A stretch of 64,000 bases of DNA. It comes from a virus. Position numbers and translations under genes: made by a program. The notes below the pieces were generated by a model, which was given only the letters and a program-made list of their open reading frames with translations, was not told the DNA's origin and ran no database searches. The stretch lies in IMG/VR virus record IMGVR_UViG_3300020468_000003, positions 41,045 to 105,044 of that record, one strand, 5' to 3'. This document shows, in pieces, positions 21,836 to 32,169 of this stretch (position 1 is the stretch's first letter; every line of letters starts with the position of its first letter).

Positions 21836-22651
21836 TTAATTAAACCTAATTGGTGCGGTGCGGGTTGTGATATCCCCTGTCATCATTGCATTGAATGAAA
21901 TGGTAATACGAGGAATGCCATTATAATCTTGATAGGATTGCTGTACTCCGTGTGGCAACCACGATGGAAACATAAGCAAACTACCATTATTTACGATTGG
22001 TGAAACTGTACCTGAGTTATGAGCAGCATGATCTTTATTTACACTTGGTTCAATAACTCTTGCAGCAGGTCTTGGATCACTAAAAGTTGTAGTTTGAGCA
22101 AATTGTGTTCCCAGATTTGGGGTACTTACATGCCATACTCCACTAAAGATAGAATTTGGGTGTGTATGATTCATGTGACAATATAATGGTCTAAAACCAA
22201 CATTTGCCCACATTGAAGTCAAATAGACTTGTTCTACCTTATAATCATAATATGCAAATACAGCAGCAGCTTCTTTAAGTAAGAAACTATGTACTTGTTC
22301 AAAACCTTCTCTCTGGTGAAGATCATCGAAACTGTACCAACCTACAGGATCTTTTGGATCTCCTGCAATTGTTCCTGCATTCTCATCTTTTGTTGCTGCT
22401 AAGACTTTTTCCTTAACATCTTTAAGGAAATCTTCATCATCAACTCTTGATTTAAAAAGTAAAGAGGGAAAAAGAACACCAATGTCCCTATCGGTAACTT
22501 TGATTTCTTTTTCAACCTCCCTTGTTGGAGATACAGGTTCATTACTTAGTTGATTTACTTCAACTCCAGTATTAATAGTAAATCCACCTTCTGGTTTACC
22601 AGATGGTATTTTTACATCACGATTCCATCCCGAATTATGTTCAGTTGTCAA
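21836..22651 (-). CDS. 2OG-Fe(II) oxygenase-family protein (TIGR02466-like), 271 aa
   Basis: MWANVGFRPLYCHMNHTHPNSIFSGVWHV, TTFSDPRP, NGSLLMFPSWLPHGVQQ and RITISFNAM match the TIGR02466/2OG-FeII_Oxy_5 motif order. The N-terminal 60 residues are polar and not part of the fold. The start codon is TTG with GGAGA upstream and a -10 box (22679-22674) 23 bases before; no ATG is available nearby. It begins the oxygenase-rich unit. Substrate unknown. Confidence 0.8.
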   Translation of the reverse strand: MTTEHNSGWNRDVKIPSGKPEGGFTINTGVEVNQLSNEPVSPTREVEKEIKVTDRDIGVLFPSLLFKSRVDDEDFLKDVKEKVLAATKDENAGTIAGDPKDPVGWYSFDDLHQREGFEQVHSFLLKEAAAVFAYYDYKVEQVYLTSMWANVGFRPLYCHMNHTHPNSIFSGVWHVSTPNLGTQFAQTTTFSDPRPAARVIEPSVNKDHAAHNSGTVSPIVNNGSLLMFPSWLPHGVQQSYQDYNGIPRITISFNAMMTGDITTRTAPIRFN

Positions 22652-22673
22652 TTAAGTATCTCCGAATATGGTT

Positions 22674-22679
22674 ATTATA
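22674..22679 (-). promoter_or_regulatory. -10 promoter box before the 271-aa oxygenase
   Basis: Minus-strand TATAAT lies 23 bases before the TTG start, with GGAGA between. It falls in the short gap after the 64-aa gene. No clear -35 is visible, as in the other cassettes. Confidence 0.5.
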
Positions 22680-22694
22680 GCATAATAAATTGAT

Positions 22695-22889
22695 TTAGAC
22701 AAGGAACTCATCCATATAGTAATCAACTGTTACTTGCATTTTGGCAGCTTCCTTTTCTAAGTAGTCTCCATGTTGAGCAAGACCTTTATAGTATTCTTGT
22801 CTCTGTTTCCACTTGATGATTTCGATTTCAGATGTAATCATGTATTTTTTTAATAATTCCATAAATTCTTCTATCTCTTCATCATTCAT
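22695..22889 (-). CDS. Small acidic helical protein, 64 aa
   Basis: The start at 22889 (MNDEEIEEFMELLKKYMITSE) overlaps the halogenase stop by 8 bases. It is almost entirely helical and could form a coiled coil (EIIKWKQRQEYYKGLAQHGDYLEKEAAK). It is coupled to the halogenase gene. No family recognised. Confidence 0.65.
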   Translation of the reverse strand: MNDEEIEEFMELLKKYMITSEIEIIKWKQRQEYYKGLAQHGDYLEKEAAKMQVTVDYYMDEFLV

Positions 22890-24654
22890 AAGTAACAAAT
22901 CCCTTGGGTCTTTGTGTCCATTTCGGATTCTTATCTCTGTAACTTGGTTCTATAGTTTTCCTTTCTTGCTTTTTAACTTTCATTTTAACACGATCAGGCA
23001 TTGAATCATATATGTGTTGTGGCACATCATCTTCTGTCCCAACGAAAGTCATATCCCCACTTGAGTCGTGTATAGTCTTACATAAGTATTCATACAATGA
23101 AGGAAGTGTCTCTGCATAATTTATATATTTCTGTTGGGTCTCTCTGTATAGTTCTTGTAACCTATCACAATGCATTTCTGGATCAAATCCTTTCAATTTT
23201 CCTAGAGATCTATGCATTTGTGCATCAATTGGAGAATAGTTCATTCCTGCAGCAACACACTGGAATCCCGCAGTACCCTCCCTAAATTGATGATATTTGT
23301 ATGCGGACGTAGCATAGTAAAGTAATTCAAGATTCTCTCCCATTTCAGTTTCATAATTCAATGAATTATTGATTGTTGGGTCAATTCTAACTCTCTCTGT
23401 TACATCTTGCCAGTATGGTGTATCATCTCTTGAACTCAATGCATAATGCATACCAACAAAGTTTGCATGACCATAGAAAATATTTCTAAGTGCATAATTA
23501 AATGCATCCCTATCCCACTGATTAACAAAATCTTTGCGTAGTGTATAGATTAATGATAATAACCACTCATATGTTGTCATTAATCCTGTACTCTCTAATG
23601 GTTCAACAAAACCACTTGATAAACCAATCGCAACTACATTCTTCTCCCATGTCTTTTCATGTATTCCATTTCTCATTGTAATGGGTTTAAATTCAAGATC
23701 CTCAATAGGAACATTATCATAACGTGTGCGGATGTAATCCTTGAACTCCTCAAGAGCTTCATCATCACTGATATACTTATCACTATAAACATACCCTGCA
23801 CCAATACGTGACCATAAAGGTATGTTCCATGTCCATCCATTACTGAGAGCAGTGCAATTTGTAAATGGTTCTAGTTGTTTATTCTTATCTGTATATGGTA
23901 TATGTGTTGCCCATGCTTTATTATTTGGAATTATGTTCTCAATACTATTAAATTTAACTCCTAATGCACCCTCTAATAATAAACTTTTGAAACCAGTGCA
24001 ATCAATGTATAAATCAGCAGTTACTTTCTCTTTATTTTGTAAAATTAAAGACTCTATACCATCATCATTTGTATTAATCTTTTCAACTGTTGAATTAATT
24101 AACTTTACACCCTTTGGAAGACATATCTTTTTCTTAAGATATTGTCCTAATGCGGTAGCGTCAAAATGAAATGCAACATCTTGAACAAATGAGAAACCAG
24201 GTGTCTTTCCACTACTATCATCAGACATCTTATTATTCTCTGAAATTGCAGCAATTGGATAGTGGCAACGTGCAAATGAATTTTGATCAAGACCACCCCT
24301 ATTTCCTTTTAAGAACCACCAGTCATTTTGTGCTACTTGTTCTATTGGTCTTTGTGCCTCTCCAAAAGGATAATGGAATCCTCCTGTATCTTTTCCTAAC
24401 CAATCTGTAAATTTAATACTTAACTTATAACTACCATCTGTTTCTGTTAAAAGATCTTTATCCTCAAGACCTATCAATGATGACCAGTGCTTTATACCAC
24501 CAAGAGTACTTTCTCCAACTCCCAATATAGGAAAGTCTGGACTCTCAATGATAGTAACATCAATGTTCGGAAGTTGTGTTGCAAATGTGGCAGCAGACAT
24601 CCAACCTGATGAACCACCACCCACAATGCATATGCTTTTAATCTTTTTGCTCAT
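22882..24654 (-). CDS. Flavin-dependent tryptophan-halogenase-like enzyme
   Basis: Starting at the ATG at 24654 the protein has 590 residues. IVGGGSSGW near residue 10 binds FAD. GVGESTL and SYKLSIKFTDW contain Lys77, at the position of the catalytic Lys79 of PrnA/RebH. A W-x-W-x-I-P element (WTWNIPL, about residue 270) blocks oxygenase chemistry in this family. VEPLESTG (about 350) carries the conserved Glu. It would need reduced FAD from a host reductase. An upstream TTG start is rejected because it lies inside the 48-aa gene. Substrate unknown. Confidence 0.88.
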   Translation of the reverse strand: MSKKIKSICIVGGGSSGWMSAATFATQLPNIDVTIIESPDFPILGVGESTLGGIKHWSSLIGLEDKDLLTETDGSYKLSIKFTDWLGKDTGGFHYPFGEAQRPIEQVAQNDWWFLKGNRGGLDQNSFARCHYPIAAISENNKMSDDSSGKTPGFSFVQDVAFHFDATALGQYLKKKICLPKGVKLINSTVEKINTNDDGIESLILQNKEKVTADLYIDCTGFKSLLLEGALGVKFNSIENIIPNNKAWATHIPYTDKNKQLEPFTNCTALSNGWTWNIPLWSRIGAGYVYSDKYISDDEALEEFKDYIRTRYDNVPIEDLEFKPITMRNGIHEKTWEKNVVAIGLSSGFVEPLESTGLMTTYEWLLSLIYTLRKDFVNQWDRDAFNYALRNIFYGHANFVGMHYALSSRDDTPYWQDVTERVRIDPTINNSLNYETEMGENLELLYYATSAYKYHQFREGTAGFQCVAAGMNYSPIDAQMHRSLGKLKGFDPEMHCDRLQELYRETQQKYINYAETLPSLYEYLCKTIHDSSGDMTFVGTEDDVPQHIYDSMPDRVKMKVKKQERKTIEPSYRDKNPKWTQRPKGFVTYE

Positions 24655-24784
24655 TCTTTTTGTTTCTACGTTCTTCAACTAATTTTAGGAACTCCTCATC
24701 TGGAGTAAAGATTACAGGACCTTCGGCAATCCTCTCCTCCAGTTCATCCAATAATGGATCCTTTTCATTGTTTTTTTCAGTCAT
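24638..24784 (-). CDS. Small acidic/basic helical protein, 48 aa
   Basis: ATG at 24784 opens MTEKNNEKDPLLDELEERIA, then GPVIFTPDEEFLKLVEERRN. It overlaps the halogenase start by 17 bases, so the two are coupled. No family recognised. Confidence 0.6.
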   Translation of the reverse strand: MTEKNNEKDPLLDELEERIAEGPVIFTPDEEFLKLVEERRNKKNEQKD

Positions 24785-24788
24785 TTTT

Positions 24789-25034
24789 TTACAAGAGATC
24801 TAAGTCTTTTCCGTGTTTGAGTTTATCCACTTCAACAGGTGGCACAAAGGCATTGAAATTATTTTTAATTTGCTCTAGTCTATCTGCTTGAGCACCTAGT
24901 TTTTTTAAAACAGTGCGACTATTAACATCAAACTTTTTAGCAGATGTATCAATCCCCTTTCCTAAAAGGACATCAATTAAAAAATCACACTCAGATTCAT
25001 CTAAGTCTGATTGTAATCTATGTATGGTTCCCAT
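24789..25034 (-). CDS. Small protein of unknown function, 81 aa
   Basis: The start at 25034 (MGTIHRLQSDLDESECDFLIDVLL) follows the upstream stop by 10 bases; the longer frame starts with TTG inside the previous gene. It has a helix-rich C-terminus VLKKLGAQADRLEQIKNNF. It lies between an oxygenase and the halogenase unit. No family recognised. Confidence 0.65.
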   Translation of the reverse strand: MGTIHRLQSDLDESECDFLIDVLLGKGIDTSAKKFDVNSRTVLKKLGAQADRLEQIKNNFNAFVPPVEVDKLKHGKDLDLL

Positions 25035-25044
25035 AATACTCAAT

Positions 25045-25935
25045 TTAAACACCCTTGTCTTGTGTACTTTCGTCAACGATTGTATCTAATTCAGATAACT
25101 TTGGATACATTCCCTTAAATGTATCTGCGTTTTGTTTCTGTTTTTTCATATCATCATCCATCTCTATTCTACCTGTGTTTTCATTAAATTGCAATAGCAT
25201 TTTTCTACCTGCCTTTCTAGCAGTTTCTCTAAAGTTTGGCGATATACCAGTTGTATCATTTGAAAATGTGGTTACATGATCACTTAACCATCCAGTACAA
25301 ACATACTTACTACCTTTAGTGACAGTTTCTCCTCTATGATAGAAATACCATGAAGCAGGGAAACAAATCAACTTTCCAGTTTTTGGTGCTACATTGAGTA
25401 TATCATTACTATTTCCACCAACTCTAAATTGTGTATGCCCACCATCAAAATCATCATTGAGATACCACATATATGTGAATAATCTTCTTGCTTGCAAAAC
25501 AGTTCCAGAATCTCTATATCCTCTTAATGGAAATACTATCGTATCTAAAATTGGAGAGACATCATCATCAGCATGCCAATCATAACTTTCTCCAACATTA
25601 GTTCTTTGTACTTGATATCCAGAATCAACCATGTCCCCTTTTGATTGAACAACATCACCTAATTTTTCTTTTATGTAAGTTAAATATTTTTTTACATGTG
25701 GGGAAAGTACTTCAAAAAAGTATGCATCATATTCTTCCCATTCTGGCCATTGAGATATCCACAGATCAGTTGATTTTTTGATACTTGTTCCATCAGCGTG
25801 TCCCTCAGTATCAGATGCTGTGATTCCCGCACTTTTACGATGATCATATTCAAATTTTTCAATGATCTCTTTGCATTTATCAGCAGGTATGACATCATCA
25901 TACTGCACTATCATATCGGCAAAATTAGTTATCAT
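25045..25935 (-). CDS. Prolyl-4-hydroxylase-like 2OG-Fe(II) oxygenase
   Basis: In this 296-residue protein YDWHADDD supplies the HxD (His121, Asp123). FPASWYFYHRGETVTKGSKYVCTGWL supplies the distal His200 and Lys210, the residue that binds 2-oxoglutarate in P4H-type enzymes. FTYMWYLNDDFDGGHTQF between them is the typical P4H strand. The C-terminus is polar. It overlaps the upstream oxygenase-like gene by 11 bases. Substrate unknown; proline hydroxylation is possible but not shown. Confidence 0.85.
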   Translation of the reverse strand: MITNFADMIVQYDDVIPADKCKEIIEKFEYDHRKSAGITASDTEGHADGTSIKKSTDLWISQWPEWEEYDAYFFEVLSPHVKKYLTYIKEKLGDVVQSKGDMVDSGYQVQRTNVGESYDWHADDDVSPILDTIVFPLRGYRDSGTVLQARRLFTYMWYLNDDFDGGHTQFRVGGNSNDILNVAPKTGKLICFPASWYFYHRGETVTKGSKYVCTGWLSDHVTTFSNDTTGISPNFRETARKAGRKMLLQFNENTGRIEMDDDMKKQKQNADTFKGMYPKLSELDTIVDESTQDKGV

Positions 25936-26434
25936 GTTGTTTTAAATTAAATGCTAAAATAATTCTTTTATCCATAACAGGTGGACTAAAATGATATATC
26001 TCTGGGTCCCAGATTAATAAATCTCCAACCTTAACTTTAGATGTTGTTGTGTTACATTGATGCAACGGATCTTGAAAATAAGTAGATTGTCCCTCGGTTA
26101 AAAATAAACAACCAGAACCACTTATTTTTGTTCCTGTATGATTATGTATAGGATGAAATCCACCAGGTTCATACACTTGAACCCAAGAATTGTCAAATGC
26201 TTCTGCAGGAGCTATAGGTTCTAAAACTTTGTAAATCCACGGAACTATATGTGCTTCATTCTTTGTACCATAAGTTGTCCAAAGTCTTCCATGATCAACA
26301 TATTTTCCATACTTCTTACACCATTCTTCAACCTTATCAAGAAATCCCTCTGGTATGGGAATATTATCTTTAATAACAATTGAAGGTGGAAAAAGTTGTT
26401 GATGCTCTGGTCCTTTTTTCTTTTCTTCACTCAT
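25925..26434 (-). CDS. 2OG-Fe(II) oxygenase/cupin-like protein
   Basis: PGGFHPIHNHTGTKISGSGCLFL, TYFQDPLH, VGDLLIWDPEIYHFSPPV and KRIILAFNL in a 169-residue protein fit the compact 2OG-FeII_Oxy_5-type beta-helix: metal His pair, distal His, then Arg. It overlaps the upstream methylase fragment by 8 bases and the next oxygenase by 11. Whether it is active is uncertain. Confidence 0.7.
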   Translation of the reverse strand: MSEEKKKGPEHQQLFPPSIVIKDNIPIPEGFLDKVEEWCKKYGKYVDHGRLWTTYGTKNEAHIVPWIYKVLEPIAPAEAFDNSWVQVYEPGGFHPIHNHTGTKISGSGCLFLTEGQSTYFQDPLHQCNTTTSKVKVGDLLIWDPEIYHFSPPVMDKRIILAFNLKQHDN

Positions 26435-26831
26435 AAAATGCCTCTAATCCAACTGGTTCTCCAAAACTATAATCATAAGTTAATGCATCATGACAAACAT
26501 AATGCGGATGATCAGGTTTTACACCTAATCTTTTACACAATTCAAGATGATTATCCTCCATGAGTTCTACTGCATACAACATATTGTTTAGTATGTGTTC
26601 CTCATCATGATACTGCAGCAATTTAGTTTTAAGAGTAACTAAAAAGTTACCACTACCTGCTGAATTATCTAGGAAAGTAGAATTAGGGTTCTTTTTTACA
26701 TCATCTGGTATATCATTTATCATTCTAGCACAAACATCCATAGGTGTAAACACTTCGCTAGTAGCATTTATCCTATCATCTGATCTTTCAATTACAGATC
26801 CTACACTCTTATTGTGGTCGTTTCTTTTCAT
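26427..26831 (-). CDS. SAM-binding half of a DNA adenine methylase (motifs X and I)
   Basis: SEVFTPMDVCARMI (residues 25-38) is motif X, and STFLDNSAGSGNFLVTL (51-67) is motif I of N6-adenine methylases. LYAVELMEDNHLELC resembles motif II. The catalytic NPPY motif is absent from its 134 residues but present in the adjacent upstream 1039-aa protein, whose gene it overlaps by 4 bases. The two probably assemble into one split methylase, with the order of halves reversed from the usual X-I-IV. Confidence 0.8.
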   Translation of the reverse strand: MKRNDHNKSVGSVIERSDDRINATSEVFTPMDVCARMINDIPDDVKKNPNSTFLDNSAGSGNFLVTLKTKLLQYHDEEHILNNMLYAVELMEDNHLELCKRLGVKPDHPHYVCHDALTYDYSFGEPVGLEAFYE

Positions 26832-29800
26832 AAAATATCAGGAATAGTTCTGAATAATTCTTTTGAATTAGTATTAACTATCCTATTCTTTAGAACCATT
26901 TGATGTACTTCATCAGATCTTAAATAATCTGCAAGTTTATTACTCTCCTCCTCAGAAGATGTTTTTATGATAACTGTAGATCCACTAATAGAATGATCGT
27001 AAGGTTTGATACGGATCTGTCCAAAACCTTGTCCACCGTATTTACTATTCATTACAACTCCATGTTGATTAATACAACAAGTATGCTGAGACTTATCAAC
27101 ATTAGTAACTTGCATCTCTCCATTTTTACCACCCATTGTAGTTATCATAGGATACTCTCCCTCAATCAATTGATTTAAGTTCAAATCTCCACGTTGATAG
27201 CGATGTCCCATATTGTTAGAAACATCTGAAACAAAATCTGGATTAGTAAATCTAATACAAGTATCATCAGTAAGTTGAATATTCTTTACTGTACCATCAA
27301 GATAAGTTAATTTTGTTAGTCCAGTGTATCCACGTTTCCATGTACAAATACATGTCTCTGTCATTGATATAGATGGAAATGTATCAGGAGATAATGCTTC
27401 AATAGAAACAATACCTGGTGTTGAAAACAAAGTTCTTCTAAACTTTGATGTGGATTTAGCAAAGTGTTTTGATCGAATTACTTCTGATACATAATCAGAT
27501 CTTTTCATTGCACTTAGATAAAAATGTGTATCTAAAGTTTTTGCACATCCACCTGTGGTTGCACCTGTTACTGTAGATGTATCTGTATATGGTGGATTAC
27601 CAACTGTAGCACTAAACTGCATTTTGTAATTACTAAGGTTGTCGGTTACATTAATTTTAGCATTAATCTGCTTTATTGCATAGCGATGAGTAGGATCGTT
27701 TTCCCACACCACTATGTCATCGGGTTCCCAAGATTTATTCTCTATTGCATATAAAGAATGAAGTCCAGAGGGATCTCCATGTATATACAACTTTTCAGTT
27801 GTATCCTTTTTTAAAGGAATCATCCTATCAAGAATATCTAATGAAAGTGTCTTTTGATTCTTTCTTGTTGTTGCAAGTTTCTGTAAGGTTCCACATTCAT
27901 CTTTAGACATAGAATGTTCAATATCTATGATTCCTTGATTAATTCTATTGATCCAAGATTTAGGTATAATCTTTTGTTCTAAACAAGCTTTGATAATACC
28001 AGTAGTGTCTCCTGTGTCATGTTCATAATATTTTGAACTAAGAATACTATCTACACTTTTAGGTGTGGATTTATTCTTTATCATATGGAAGATAACTAAT
28101 CCTATTCTCTCCATGTATGCTTGAATAGTTTCTGTTTTCTGTGCTATCTCAGACTTATCAAAATGTGTAGAAAATTTAGATGAACTGGTAAGTTTCTTAT
28201 TACTGTTTGCGTTAGCATTGTTTTCATTTACTGTAAAAGAACTCCATGAAGATAACTTTGCACTCTTCTGAAAATTATCAAATTCAATGTCTCCTAACTT
28301 AAGAAAATCTAATTGAGATACAATACCTGATATCAAAGATACTGCACTGTCTACATCATTAGATAGAATTTCGTTTAGACGTTCTGGTGTTACTTCTTCA
28401 AAATCAGAGAAGTATTCAAAGATAGGAACTAAATCAAGAAGTTCATATTCAGATTCTGTTAACTCATGATTCAAATCACATGCAGTAAAATACATGTTTC
28501 TGATTGTAGTAAAACAACGTTCTGGGCAAAAATCAATTACATCCCAAAAGTTTCTCTTTGTTGATCCACCACGGAAAGCAAACTGTGTCCATTGTTCTCT
28601 TGATGATCCTTCTGCACAATTCATAACAGTATCAATACCCTCTGCAGTTAGACCAAGAACATTTGCAGTTTTAGTTAAGATAACTGTAGATGTGTTAGTA
28701 TCAATATGTGATCTGATTGTCTCAGAATTTTCTCTAGTATCTGAAGTTACAACTAATGGTTTAAATCTTGTTGATTTAAAATAATCTACAAGTGCATGAC
28801 ATGATGCCATAGAAGGCAAAGTTATCATTACATGTCTACAGTTCTTTAGTATTCTTTTGTTATACTTTATTCCATCTTGAGTAAACACTTTACTCATAAA
28901 TTCATCAACTAATATTGGTTCAGCAAAATCATCCTCATCTTTGTTTACTCTAAAAATATTACCCATTGCATCAGGATCATCGCCATATAAGTCTTGATAT
29001 TTACTGGACTCATACTTTGCAAGAATCAATCTCATCTGTGGAGAATTTACATACTCCTTTATACCTTGCAATTTATACAATTGCTCCTCAAAATATGAAT
29101 ATACAAATCTAAATTTAGGAAAATCTTCTAAGATTTTATGTGCAGTTCCTGAGACATACAATACTTTTGTATCGAAGTGATCTCTAAGACTTATCCATTG
29201 ATCTCCCTCATATCCAAGATGTGCTTCATCGAATACTATTAGATCAATATTACAAGGTAGATTCTTATATCTGTTAGGAGCTTGAATAGTAGAATATAGA
29301 ACTATTTGTTTTTCAGTTCCCATCCAATACTCTATCTCATTCTTAAACTGATCTACTTCACCATCACGAATATCAATGAATATAATATTATCAAAGTTTT
29401 TAAACTGTTGGGAATCATCTCTCCATGATTGTTTAGGAGAATTTCTATATGAAACAACTAAGGATACCTTAACATTACTCTCTACAATAGAGGAAAGAAC
29501 CATTGTAGATTTACCTGCACGACACTTAGCAAATAACAAATACTCTTTCCATTCATCCCATGTTGAAGTTATCTCAGATACAAATTCTTTTTGGTGTTTG
29601 CGAAGTTTACGATATTCTTTTTCCTCTACATTATTTGTAAAAAACTCTTCTTCAATAAGATCCTTTACAACATCAATACTTAAACCATGACCATCTTCAA
29701 TTTTATAAGTCTCTCTACCAGTTTGTGTAATACCACGTTGTTTTTTTAACCAACTATGTATCTCATGATCTCTACCATCAAAATCTGTCCACCATCCTCT

Positions 29801-29947
29801 CTTTATTCTTGCACTACCAACTGCTGCTAAATCTTGTTTTGACTTACCATAGTCTCCACCTTTATGTCTATCTTCATATGTGTGTATGGTTTCTCCTAAA
29901 CCGAAGGCAGACGGATTACCTTTAAACCCGTCAAGGTAAATGTTCAT
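26828..29947 (-). CDS. Helicase-methylase fusion with NPPY motif, 1039 aa
   Basis: Residues about 140-148 (AKCRAGKST) are Walker A. VFDEAH (240-243 DEAH) is motif II and VSGTAH near 270 is motif III. ILTKTANVLGLTAEGIDTVMNC and QWTQFAFRGGS resemble motifs V and VI of SF2 helicases. NPPY at 784-787 is the N6-adenine methylase catalytic motif. The C-terminal 250 residues look like a target-recognition part. The N-terminal 110 residues (DHEIHSWLKKQRG...GRETYKI) faintly resemble a T5orf172/GIY-YIG tail. Architecture recalls type ISP restriction enzymes but lacks motifs X/I, which are in the next gene. Confidence 0.8.
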   Translation of the reverse strand: MNIYLDGFKGNPSAFGLGETIHTYEDRHKGGDYGKSKQDLAAVGSARIKRGWWTDFDGRDHEIHSWLKKQRGITQTGRETYKIEDGHGLSIDVVKDLIEEEFFTNNVEEKEYRKLRKHQKEFVSEITSTWDEWKEYLLFAKCRAGKSTMVLSSIVESNVKVSLVVSYRNSPKQSWRDDSQQFKNFDNIIFIDIRDGEVDQFKNEIEYWMGTEKQIVLYSTIQAPNRYKNLPCNIDLIVFDEAHLGYEGDQWISLRDHFDTKVLYVSGTAHKILEDFPKFRFVYSYFEEQLYKLQGIKEYVNSPQMRLILAKYESSKYQDLYGDDPDAMGNIFRVNKDEDDFAEPILVDEFMSKVFTQDGIKYNKRILKNCRHVMITLPSMASCHALVDYFKSTRFKPLVVTSDTRENSETIRSHIDTNTSTVILTKTANVLGLTAEGIDTVMNCAEGSSREQWTQFAFRGGSTKRNFWDVIDFCPERCFTTIRNMYFTACDLNHELTESEYELLDLVPIFEYFSDFEEVTPERLNEILSNDVDSAVSLISGIVSQLDFLKLGDIEFDNFQKSAKLSSWSSFTVNENNANANSNKKLTSSSKFSTHFDKSEIAQKTETIQAYMERIGLVIFHMIKNKSTPKSVDSILSSKYYEHDTGDTTGIIKACLEQKIIPKSWINRINQGIIDIEHSMSKDECGTLQKLATTRKNQKTLSLDILDRMIPLKKDTTEKLYIHGDPSGLHSLYAIENKSWEPDDIVVWENDPTHRYAIKQINAKINVTDNLSNYKMQFSATVGNPPYTDTSTVTGATTGGCAKTLDTHFYLSAMKRSDYVSEVIRSKHFAKSTSKFRRTLFSTPGIVSIEALSPDTFPSISMTETCICTWKRGYTGLTKLTYLDGTVKNIQLTDDTCIRFTNPDFVSDVSNNMGHRYQRGDLNLNQLIEGEYPMITTMGGKNGEMQVTNVDKSQHTCCINQHGVVMNSKYGGQGFGQIRIKPYDHSISGSTVIIKTSSEEESNKLADYLRSDEVHQMVLKNRIVNTNSKELFRTIPDIL

Positions 29948-31374: not shown

Positions 31375-31489
31375 TCTGTAATTCTTTTGATGTTAAATTA
31401 TTTAACCAACTCCAATCTGGGTCTTTTTTGTCCCATTCTGCAGTAAAAGAACCATCATCATTTCTGTTAATTTTTAGAGAGTTGTTCAT
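31337..31489 (-). CDS. Small acidic protein after ho1, 50 aa
   Basis: ATG at 31489 (MNNSLKINRNDDGSFTAEWD) overlaps the ho1 stop in an ATGA-type junction. A Trp-rich turn (DPDWSWLNNLT) leads into a helix KELQNVFEQAVRM. No family recognised. Confidence 0.6.
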   Translation of the reverse strand: MNNSLKINRNDDGSFTAEWDKKDPDWSWLNNLTSKELQNVFEQAVRMDQQ

Positions 31490-32169
31490 CTTGGCATACG
31501 ATCAAATATTGATGCCAAAATAATTTGGAAAAATGATTTTGCTGCGTTGCCTTTTAACTCATCAAACATATACATGTTCAATCTGAATGCGTAATTTGCT
31601 TCTGTAATTATAGCATTCTTTTCTGATACTGTCAGTGGTAATTCATCTAATGCACTACGATATTTTTCTTTATATGCTTTAGCATCATCAATATTTTCAA
31701 ACTCATAAAAGTCTAAACCAGCTTTCTCTAAGTTCATTGCTTTCTTTGCAATGTTTTTTAATATTTGTCCTCCTGACAAATCTCCCAAGTATCGTGTATA
31801 ATGATGACCAACTAATAATTCTGGTTCATCTTCAGCAACTTCACGAATACGATTAACATATTGTTTACATGCTTGACTTGGTTCTATTTTAGTTCTCCAA
31901 TCAAGACCATAGTAATATAGTAAATCTTTTTCTAATGCTATCAATCTTTCTAATTCTGGAAAATATAAACTACCAACTATAGGGTGTGTTCTTAACCCAT
32001 ATACTTCCTCCTCTAATGCCTTATAAACGAAGTAGAGATCCGATACTAAGCATTTGTAATTGTCTGGACTTACAACTCCACGTAAAAATGATTTGACAAA
32101 AGCAGTGTTCTCTGCTGCTGTATGTGATTTCTTTGTTCCTACTTTTAATTCCTTTGCAAAATTAGTCAT
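31486..32169 (-). CDS. ho1: Heme oxygenase (biliverdin-forming), cyanophage ho1
   Basis: This 227-residue protein has the heme-oxygenase start MTNFAKELKVGTKKSHTAAENTAFVKSFLRG, with the proximal heme-binding His16. GHHYTRYLGDLSGGQILKNIA at about 122-142 is the distal-helix signature with the flexible GxxxG-type glycines. It opens heme to biliverdin, feeding phycobilin pigments, as in host HO1. Cyanophage versions are host-derived auxiliary genes. The start overlaps the 42-aa gene by 8 bases, and the unit is read from a late promoter at 32327-32320. Confidence 0.96.
   Translation of the reverse strand: MTNFAKELKVGTKKSHTAAENTAFVKSFLRGVVSPDNYKCLVSDLYFVYKALEEEVYGLRTHPIVGSLYFPELERLIALEKDLLYYYGLDWRTKIEPSQACKQYVNRIREVAEDEPELLVGHHYTRYLGDLSGGQILKNIAKKAMNLEKAGLDFYEFENIDDAKAYKEKYRSALDELPLTVSEKNAIITEANYAFRLNMYMFDELKGNAAKSFFQIILASIFDRMPR

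What the first reader, a model, noticed from the sequence alone, without database searches (positions are those of the whole stretch)
26427..29947. Split and reordered helicase-methylase, restriction-like but with its SAM half on a separate gene
The 1039-aa protein has SF2 motifs (Walker A, DEAH) and the NPPY methylase motif but lacks motifs X and I. The next gene, overlapping by 4 bases, encodes motifs X and I (FTP, DNSAGSGNF) without NPPY. Together they make one adenine methylase plus helicase, in an order opposite to the usual X-I-IV. This resembles a circularly permuted, split type ISP or BREX-like module carried by a phage.
Basis: partly seen in the sequence, partly recalled or inferred. 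Interest (0 to 1): 0.85.

Follow-up and report, generated by a model that had tools for sequence, protein, structure and literature searches.

The report
DNA methylase split across two genes
Marine cyanophages build one DNA-marking enzyme from two separately encoded halves, a nearly constant cofactor-binding piece and an exchangeable catalytic and DNA-reading piece, which in this virus is fused to a helicase, so it looks like a mix-and-match phage modification (and perhaps restriction) system.

Summary
On the minus strand, a 1039-aa gene (helicase, then NPPY plus target-recognition region) overlaps by ATGA a 134-aa gene that carries methylase motifs X (FTP) and I (DNSAGSGNF). The pair is not a local oddity. 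Of 350 relatives of the small gene found in viral contigs, the 80 best were kept. Essentially every one with intact flanks has an NPPY-type gene next to it, and 80/80 minimal NPPY genes have the small gene directly downstream. About half of the distinct partners begin just before NPPY and have no SAM half at all. In sister phages the window's own NPPY region (86% identical) is a stand-alone 273-aa gene. Aeromonas phages carry both halves fused in the same permuted order. I conclude it is a naturally split gamma-type adenine methylase with a constant SAM subunit. One correction: the 1039-aa protein does contain an eroded SAM-half fold (GDPSG, aa 718-773), and AlphaFold predicts this region as a TaqI-like Rossmann core, so what that half does is open. 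The T5orf172-like/helicase fusion resembles Type ISP in layout but fails its defining features; BREX is not supported. Restriction activity is inferred, not shown.

The parts
26828..29947 (-). Gene A (P0002, 1039 aa): T5orf172-like N-terminus, SF2 ResIII-type helicase, degenerate SAM half, motif IV-VIII plus target-recognition region
29618..29947 (-). aa 1-110, T5orf172/GIY-YIG-like N-terminal region (inferred by homology; the window copy itself has no Pfam hit)
   Evidence: 5 of 10 aligned relatives match T5orf172, best E 3e-6; invariant G18, R27, D32, D60, E79
28358..29608 (-). aa 114-530, SF2 helicase core: CRAGKS (142), DEAH (240), SGT (266), QFAFRGG (455). The end point is approximate
   Evidence: ResIII E 3e-7 for aa 114-268; motifs
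27629..27796 (-). aa 718-773, degenerate SAM half with GDPSG in place of canonical motif I; predicted Rossmann beta1-beta3
   Evidence: higher dN/dS than most of the protein
26831..27622 (-). aa 776-1039, catalytic motif IV (NPPY, codons 27598-27587), later motifs and target-recognition region; stand-alone gene in sister phages
26828..26831 (-). ATGA overlap of stop and start (likely translational coupling)
26427..26831 (-). Gene B (P0001, 134 aa, phrog_4376): constant SAM-binding subunit with motifs X (FTP, aa 28-30), I (DNSAGSGNF, aa 55-63), II and III-like

Best explanation
The two genes encode the halves of one gamma-type (M.TaqI/HsdM-like) N6-adenine DNA methyltransferase, cut between strand beta3 and strand beta4, just before NPPY. 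Gene B is a constant subunit that supplies the SAM pocket (motifs X, I, II, III). Gene A supplies the catalytic NPPY half and the DNA-reading region. The two are translated together through the ATGA overlap and assemble in trans (shown: motif content, linkage, natural fusion; inferred: assembly and activity). The catalytic/TRD half is exchanged between phages as a module with a fixed border about 8 residues before NPPY, so one SAM subunit family serves many target specificities (module exchange shown; specificity inferred). In this phage the catalytic half is also fused to an SF2 translocase with a T5orf172-like N-terminus, probably making a Type ISP-like modification and restriction enzyme used for marking phage DNA and attacking rival DNA (inferred; less certain than the methylase part). 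The eroded SAM half that remains in gene A is probably a structural leftover, or a placeholder that the small subunit replaces (inference).
For: Complementary motifs. 76 of 87 small genes have an NPPY-type neighbour, usually directly upstream and overlapping. The exceptions inspected are contig edges, NFPY variants (L020, L040), long partners with NSPF/NFPF (L057, L068) or the fused protein itself. 80/80 minimal NPPY genes have the small gene directly downstream. Of 116 distinct partners, 65 have no upstream half, and only 1 of the remaining 51 has a canonical motif I in cis by regex, while 141/141 small proteins keep it. Sister phages L013, L015-L017 and L181 keep aa 767-1039 (86% identical) as a 273-aa gene plus the small gene and lack the helicase part at this locus. 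The Aeromonas phage fusion is homologous to a catalytic half at its N-terminus (E 1e-19) and to P0001 at its C-terminus (E 6e-12). Homology between different partners starts exactly at M776. 105 of 154 pairs sharing the catalytic half have unrelated upstream halves, and 40 of 120 pairs sharing the upstream half have unrelated catalytic halves. The small-gene tree follows partner class (20 changes against 50.9 shuffled). Profile hits fall on motif X-I of CamA, BseCI and HsdM for the small protein, and weakly on motif IV-VIII of HsdM and TaqI for the partner. Precedent: a C5 methylase split between motifs II and III complements in vivo, and overlapping fragments also work (PMC5944983).
Against: No complex structure was obtained. 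The model of the natural fusion is weak, and the Foldseek matches align only parts of it. P0002 aa 700-1039 alone is predicted as a whole TaqI-like fold, which leaves unclear where P0001 would dock. One partner (L008) has a near-canonical motif I (DPAMGGGQY) and NPPY in one protein and still neighbours a small gene. No activity data exist. The nuclease role of the T5orf172-like region is inferred only, and the window copy does not match Pfam itself.
Confidence: 0.78

Rival explanations
1. The C-terminal part of P0002 is a complete methylase that binds SAM through an unusual short loop (GDPxGxHS, acidic VWENDP), and P0001 is an accessory or regulatory subunit or belongs to a heterodimer of two incomplete Rossmann folds.
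For: AlphaFold of aa 700-1039 gives confident beta1-beta4 (pLDDT 86-93) and full-length Foldseek matches to M.TaqI (E 3e-8, about 380 columns). GDPxGxHS is conserved in several partner types.
Against: Sister phages and 65 of 116 partners lack this segment and still keep the small gene. Different partners carry unrelated, differently eroded versions. The segment is the least constrained part of the protein in three of four comparisons. The small protein's motif I is invariant.
Confidence: 0.13
2. The pair is a modification-only enzyme. The helicase and T5orf172-like parts serve recombination or replication rather than restriction. (This rival concerns the biological role only and is compatible with the split methylase.)
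For: More than half of the distinct pairs have no fused helicase. T5orf172 was linked to recombination by Iyer and colleagues (PMC7824862). The closest sister phages lack the helicase part at this locus.
Against: The domain order nuclease-like, SF2, methylase, TRD matches a restriction translocase. Other cyanophages place a separate phrog_7683 gene with a weak Mrr_cat match, and helicase genes, beside the same methylase halves. ResIII is the family hit.
Confidence: 0.35
3. The small gene is a broken fragment or assembly artefact of a formerly single methylase gene.
For: Its length corresponds to one half of a methylase domain.
Against: Same split in dozens of independent contigs and isolates, strong purifying selection, invariant motifs.
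Confidence: 0.01
4. The pair makes a catalytically dead DNA-binding complex (decoy or anti-restriction).
For: No activity data exist; nothing in the calls excludes it outright.
Against: Catalytic NPPY and SAM-binding residues are both kept, and kept together.
Confidence: 0.05

Closest known systems
Circularly permuted M.EcoKI-like adenine methylases of jumbo phages (Iyer et al. 2021, PMC7824862); Aeromonas phage Aeh1/AsFcp_4 protein, phrog_11371
   Same: The Aeromonas protein is homologous to both halves and has the same permuted order NPPY-TRD-X-I
   Different: One chain there; two genes here. The passage read mentions permuted methylases but no split. Its exact example (APU01582.1) was not checked to be this protein
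Type ISP restriction-modification enzymes (LlaGI, LlaBIII)
   Same: Domain order nuclease-like, SF2 helicase, gamma-type methylase, TRD
   Different: Type ISP is one chain with an Mrr nuclease, a coupler and an intact methylase (PMC4872093). Here the N-terminus is T5orf172-like, the chain is split and the SAM half is in trans
Naturally split C5 methylase M.AquI
   Same: One methylase from two genes
   Different: Cytosine-5 enzyme bisected between motif VIII and TRD (PMC5944983), not between SAM and catalytic halves of an adenine enzyme, and not permuted
M.TaqI, CamA, HsdM (gamma-class N6-adenine methylases)
   Same: Fold and motif hits of both halves
   Different: Single chains in order X-I-IV-TRD
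Beta-class methylases
   Same: Motif order IV-TRD-X-I (class definition from general knowledge)
   Different: Sequence similarity is to the gamma class; order only

Membership tests
gamma-type N6-adenine DNA methyltransferase (as a two-chain enzyme) | Motif IV NPPY in a Rossmann half with homology to Eco57I/TaqI/HsdM | tested here: met
   (Eco57I below Pfam cut-off; fold match E 3e-8)
gamma-type N6-adenine DNA methyltransferase (as a two-chain enzyme) | Motif X and motif I SAM-binding half | tested here: met
   In gene B: FTP and DNSAGSGNF; profile hits to CamA, BseCI, HsdM
gamma-type N6-adenine DNA methyltransferase (as a two-chain enzyme) | Order X-I-IV-TRD in the chain(s) | tested here: not met
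   Gene order is IV-TRD then X-I; hence a permuted, split variant rather than an ordinary member
gamma-type N6-adenine DNA methyltransferase (as a two-chain enzyme) | Halves assemble and methylate adenine | not testable with these tools
Type ISP restriction-modification | All functions in a single polypeptide | tested here: not met
   SAM half encoded by a second gene
Type ISP restriction-modification | N-terminal Mrr-family nuclease | tested here: not met
   No Mrr hit; T5orf172-like by homology
Type ISP restriction-modification | SF2 helicase-like ATPase upstream of methylase and TRD | tested here: met
   ResIII at aa 114-268, NPPY at 784
Type ISP restriction-modification | Helical coupler domain | not tested
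   Region aa about 530-700 was not modelled
BREX | PglX-type methylase with BREX partner genes | tested here: not met
   No BREX model hit in P0001 or P0002; none of the adjoining ORFs listed looks like a BREX gene (read by eye)
phrog_4376 | Full-length match to the family profile | tested here: met
   E 9.6e-70, 1-133 of 134

The most novel reading that the evidence does not exclude
The cis SAM-like half in gene A is a deliberate dummy. It completes the methylase fold without cofactor chemistry, holding the helicase-linked enzyme on DNA in a restriction-competent, methylation-incompetent state, and the small subunit replaces it to switch the enzyme to modification. A shared cofactor-half subunit exchanging with dummy halves would be a new way to control restriction against modification.
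Probability: 0.12. Interest if true: 0.85.

Novelty: new variant of a known kind. Interest (0 to 1): 0.64.

Why it matters
It would be a natural, widespread example of a DNA adenine methylase cut between its cofactor and catalytic halves, with one conserved cofactor subunit serving many interchangeable catalytic/recognition subunits. That bears on how circularly permuted methylases arise (split first, re-fuse in the other order: both states are seen in phages), gives a ready-made two-part methylase for controlled DNA marking, and suggests that common ocean cyanophages carry modification or restriction systems annotated so far mostly as hypothetical proteins.

Tried and rejected
Artefact or pseudogene: rejected (conserved family, dN/dS well below 1). 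BREX membership: no hits. Plain Type ISP membership: fails single chain and Mrr. Chance neighbours: rejected by 80/80 linkage. Cellular origin: the single genome-collection scan found one relative, in a Rhodobacteraceae MAG contig that is possibly phage. A first alignment for that job (A5) placed the small proteins wrongly and was dropped. The natural-fusion model was too weak to prove interlocking, and Foldseek is order-dependent, so it cannot show a permuted match. phmmer of the single proteins against PDB gave nothing useful. The profile of the minimal NPPY half found no methylase in PDB by sequence. Papers searched in the held library showed no description of this split; the library lacks most subscription journals.
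Full report
WHAT IS THERE. Two genes lie on the minus strand and share the four bases ATGA: P0002 (26828-29947, 1039 aa) and, downstream of it, P0001 (26427-26831, 134 aa). P0002 carries SF2 motifs (CRAGKS 142, DEAH 240, SGT 266; ResIII E 3e-7) and NPPY at 784 inside an Eco57I-like match. P0001 carries FTP (28), DNSAGSGNF (55), an acidic motif II-like and a motif III-like stretch, and ends there; its family is phrog_4376 (E 1e-69). The window belongs to a 105-kb virus record whose best matches among isolates are T4-like cyanophages. The record holds a single place for each methylase half, so the only partner visible for P0001 is P0002 (the record may be a fragment).

THE PAIR IS A FAMILY. P0001 relatives occur in 46 phage records, nearly all cyanophages, mostly at 60-71% identity, and in 350 stretches of viral contigs, of which the best 80 were kept. 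Beside them lies a gene with NPPY or a variant. The automatic scan found it for 76 of 87 small genes; the exceptions inspected are contig ends, partners with NFPY (L020, L040) or long partners with NSPF or NFPF (L057, L068), and the Aeromonas fusion itself. The partner is usually upstream and overlapping; in ACG-2014f isolates it is downstream. In the reciprocal search, 80 of 80 minimal NPPY genes have the small gene directly downstream.

DIVISION OF LABOUR. Of 116 distinct partners, 65 begin within about 30 residues of NPPY, typically 'MRFSLAIGNPPYGVGG', and have no SAM half. 51 have an upstream segment (13 of them with a helicase), and only one of these (L008) shows a canonical-looking motif I by regex, whereas all 141 distinct small proteins keep FTP and D.[SCA][AS]G.GN. 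In sister phages with the same gene neighbourhood (L013, L015-L017, L181) the first 766 residues of P0002 are absent at this locus, and aa 767-1039 (86% identical) form a 273-aa gene followed by the small gene. By established knowledge of Rossmann methylases, a protein that starts at beta4 cannot bind SAM alone, so the small subunit must provide that half in those phages; that it does so in this phage is inferred.

MODULE BORDER AND PERMUTATION. P0002 and the S-CAM7 (0809CC03) partner are homologous only from M776 onward, 8 residues before NPPY. Across 39 dereplicated partners that have an upstream segment, 105 of 154 pairs sharing the catalytic half have unrelated upstream halves, and 40 of 120 pairs sharing the upstream half have unrelated catalytic halves. 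The split point of the genes is thus also an exchange point. Aeromonas phages (AsFcp_4, PX29, Aeh1 and others) encode one 415-aa protein with NPPY at residue 9 and X-I near residues 290-330. Its N-terminal part is homologous to a cyanophage partner (E 1e-19) and its C-terminal part to P0001 (E 6e-12). The tree of small proteins follows partner class (20 changes against 50.9 in shuffles), with some exchange; the tree rests on few columns.

P0002 does not simply lack the SAM half. aa 718-773 (IHGDPSGLHS ... VVWENDP ...) are predicted with high local confidence as beta1-alphaA-beta2-alphaB-beta3 running into NPPY, and aa 700-1039 alone match M.TaqI over its whole length (Foldseek E 3e-8; overall pLDDT 73, pTM 0.48). 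The G-loop is not canonical, no motif X was seen, several unrelated eroded versions occur at this place in other partners, and this 64-codon segment has the highest dN/dS of the protein in three of four comparisons (0.17-0.48 against 0.04-0.11 for most other regions; small counts; in the fourth, L178, the N-terminus is higher). Its role is open: relic, placeholder or an unusual SAM site (rival 1). Artificially split C5 methylases complement even when the fragments overlap (PMC5944983), so a redundant cis half need not prevent assembly in trans.

HELICASE AND N-TERMINUS. Relatives of the N-terminal region match T5orf172 (5 of 10, best E 3e-6), a GIY-YIG/Uri-type nuclease family; the window copy does not match directly but aligns with kept G18, R27, D32, D60, E79. 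Other cyanophages place a separate phrog_7683 gene with a weak Mrr_cat match (13 bits, below cut-off) and helicase genes beside the same methylase halves. A restriction function is therefore plausible but unproved; Iyer and colleagues linked T5orf172 to recombination (PMC7824862).

COMPARISON WITH KNOWN SYSTEMS. Type ISP has an N-terminal Mrr nuclease, SF2 ATPase, coupler, gamma methylase and TRD in one chain (PMC4872093). The window unit shares the order but fails 'single chain' and 'Mrr', so it works like, but is not filed as, Type ISP. BREX is not supported. Circularly permuted adenine methylases of jumbo phages are known (PMC7824862), and split C5 methylases are known (AquI). I found no description of a split SAM/catalytic adenine methylase with a constant cofactor subunit in the papers searched, within the limits of an open-licence library.

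LIMITS. All function is inferred from sequence.

Noticed in passing
window 22882-24678: 598-aa protein whose sequence suggests a flavin-dependent (tryptophan-type) halogenase (GGGSSGW, GWTWNIP), amid several proteins that look like 2OG-Fe(II) oxygenases (21836-26434); recalls the halogenated-metabolite cluster described for S-SSM6a (PMC7824862).
   Followed up: no
window 31486-32169: Protein that looks like a heme oxygenase (ho1-type) of 227 aa, kept in synteny also in sister phages L013-L017.
   Followed up: no
L001 4042-5486 and 11387-12402: S-CAM7 carries two separate split methylase pairs, suggesting two specificities in one phage.
   Followed up: partly
L002 6485-7087; L005 5439-6002: phrog_7683 protein next to the split methylase genes; looks like a PD-(D/E)XK (Mrr-like) nuclease, but the Pfam hit is only 13 bits.
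   Followed up: partly
L004 4659-6038 and similar 440-480 aa partners: N-terminal about 170 aa with a YIGQT...DHEIR pattern that looks GIY-YIG-like, fused to the NPPY half without a helicase; Pfam gave no hit for that region in related partners.
   Followed up: partly
L008 4931-5992: Only partner found with a near-canonical motif I (DPAMGGGQY) in the same protein as NPPY, yet still followed by a small SAM-half gene.
   Followed up: partly
L182 742-1146: Single hit in the cellular genome collection: a Rhodobacteraceae MAG contig of 20 kb, possibly phage DNA.
   Followed up: no
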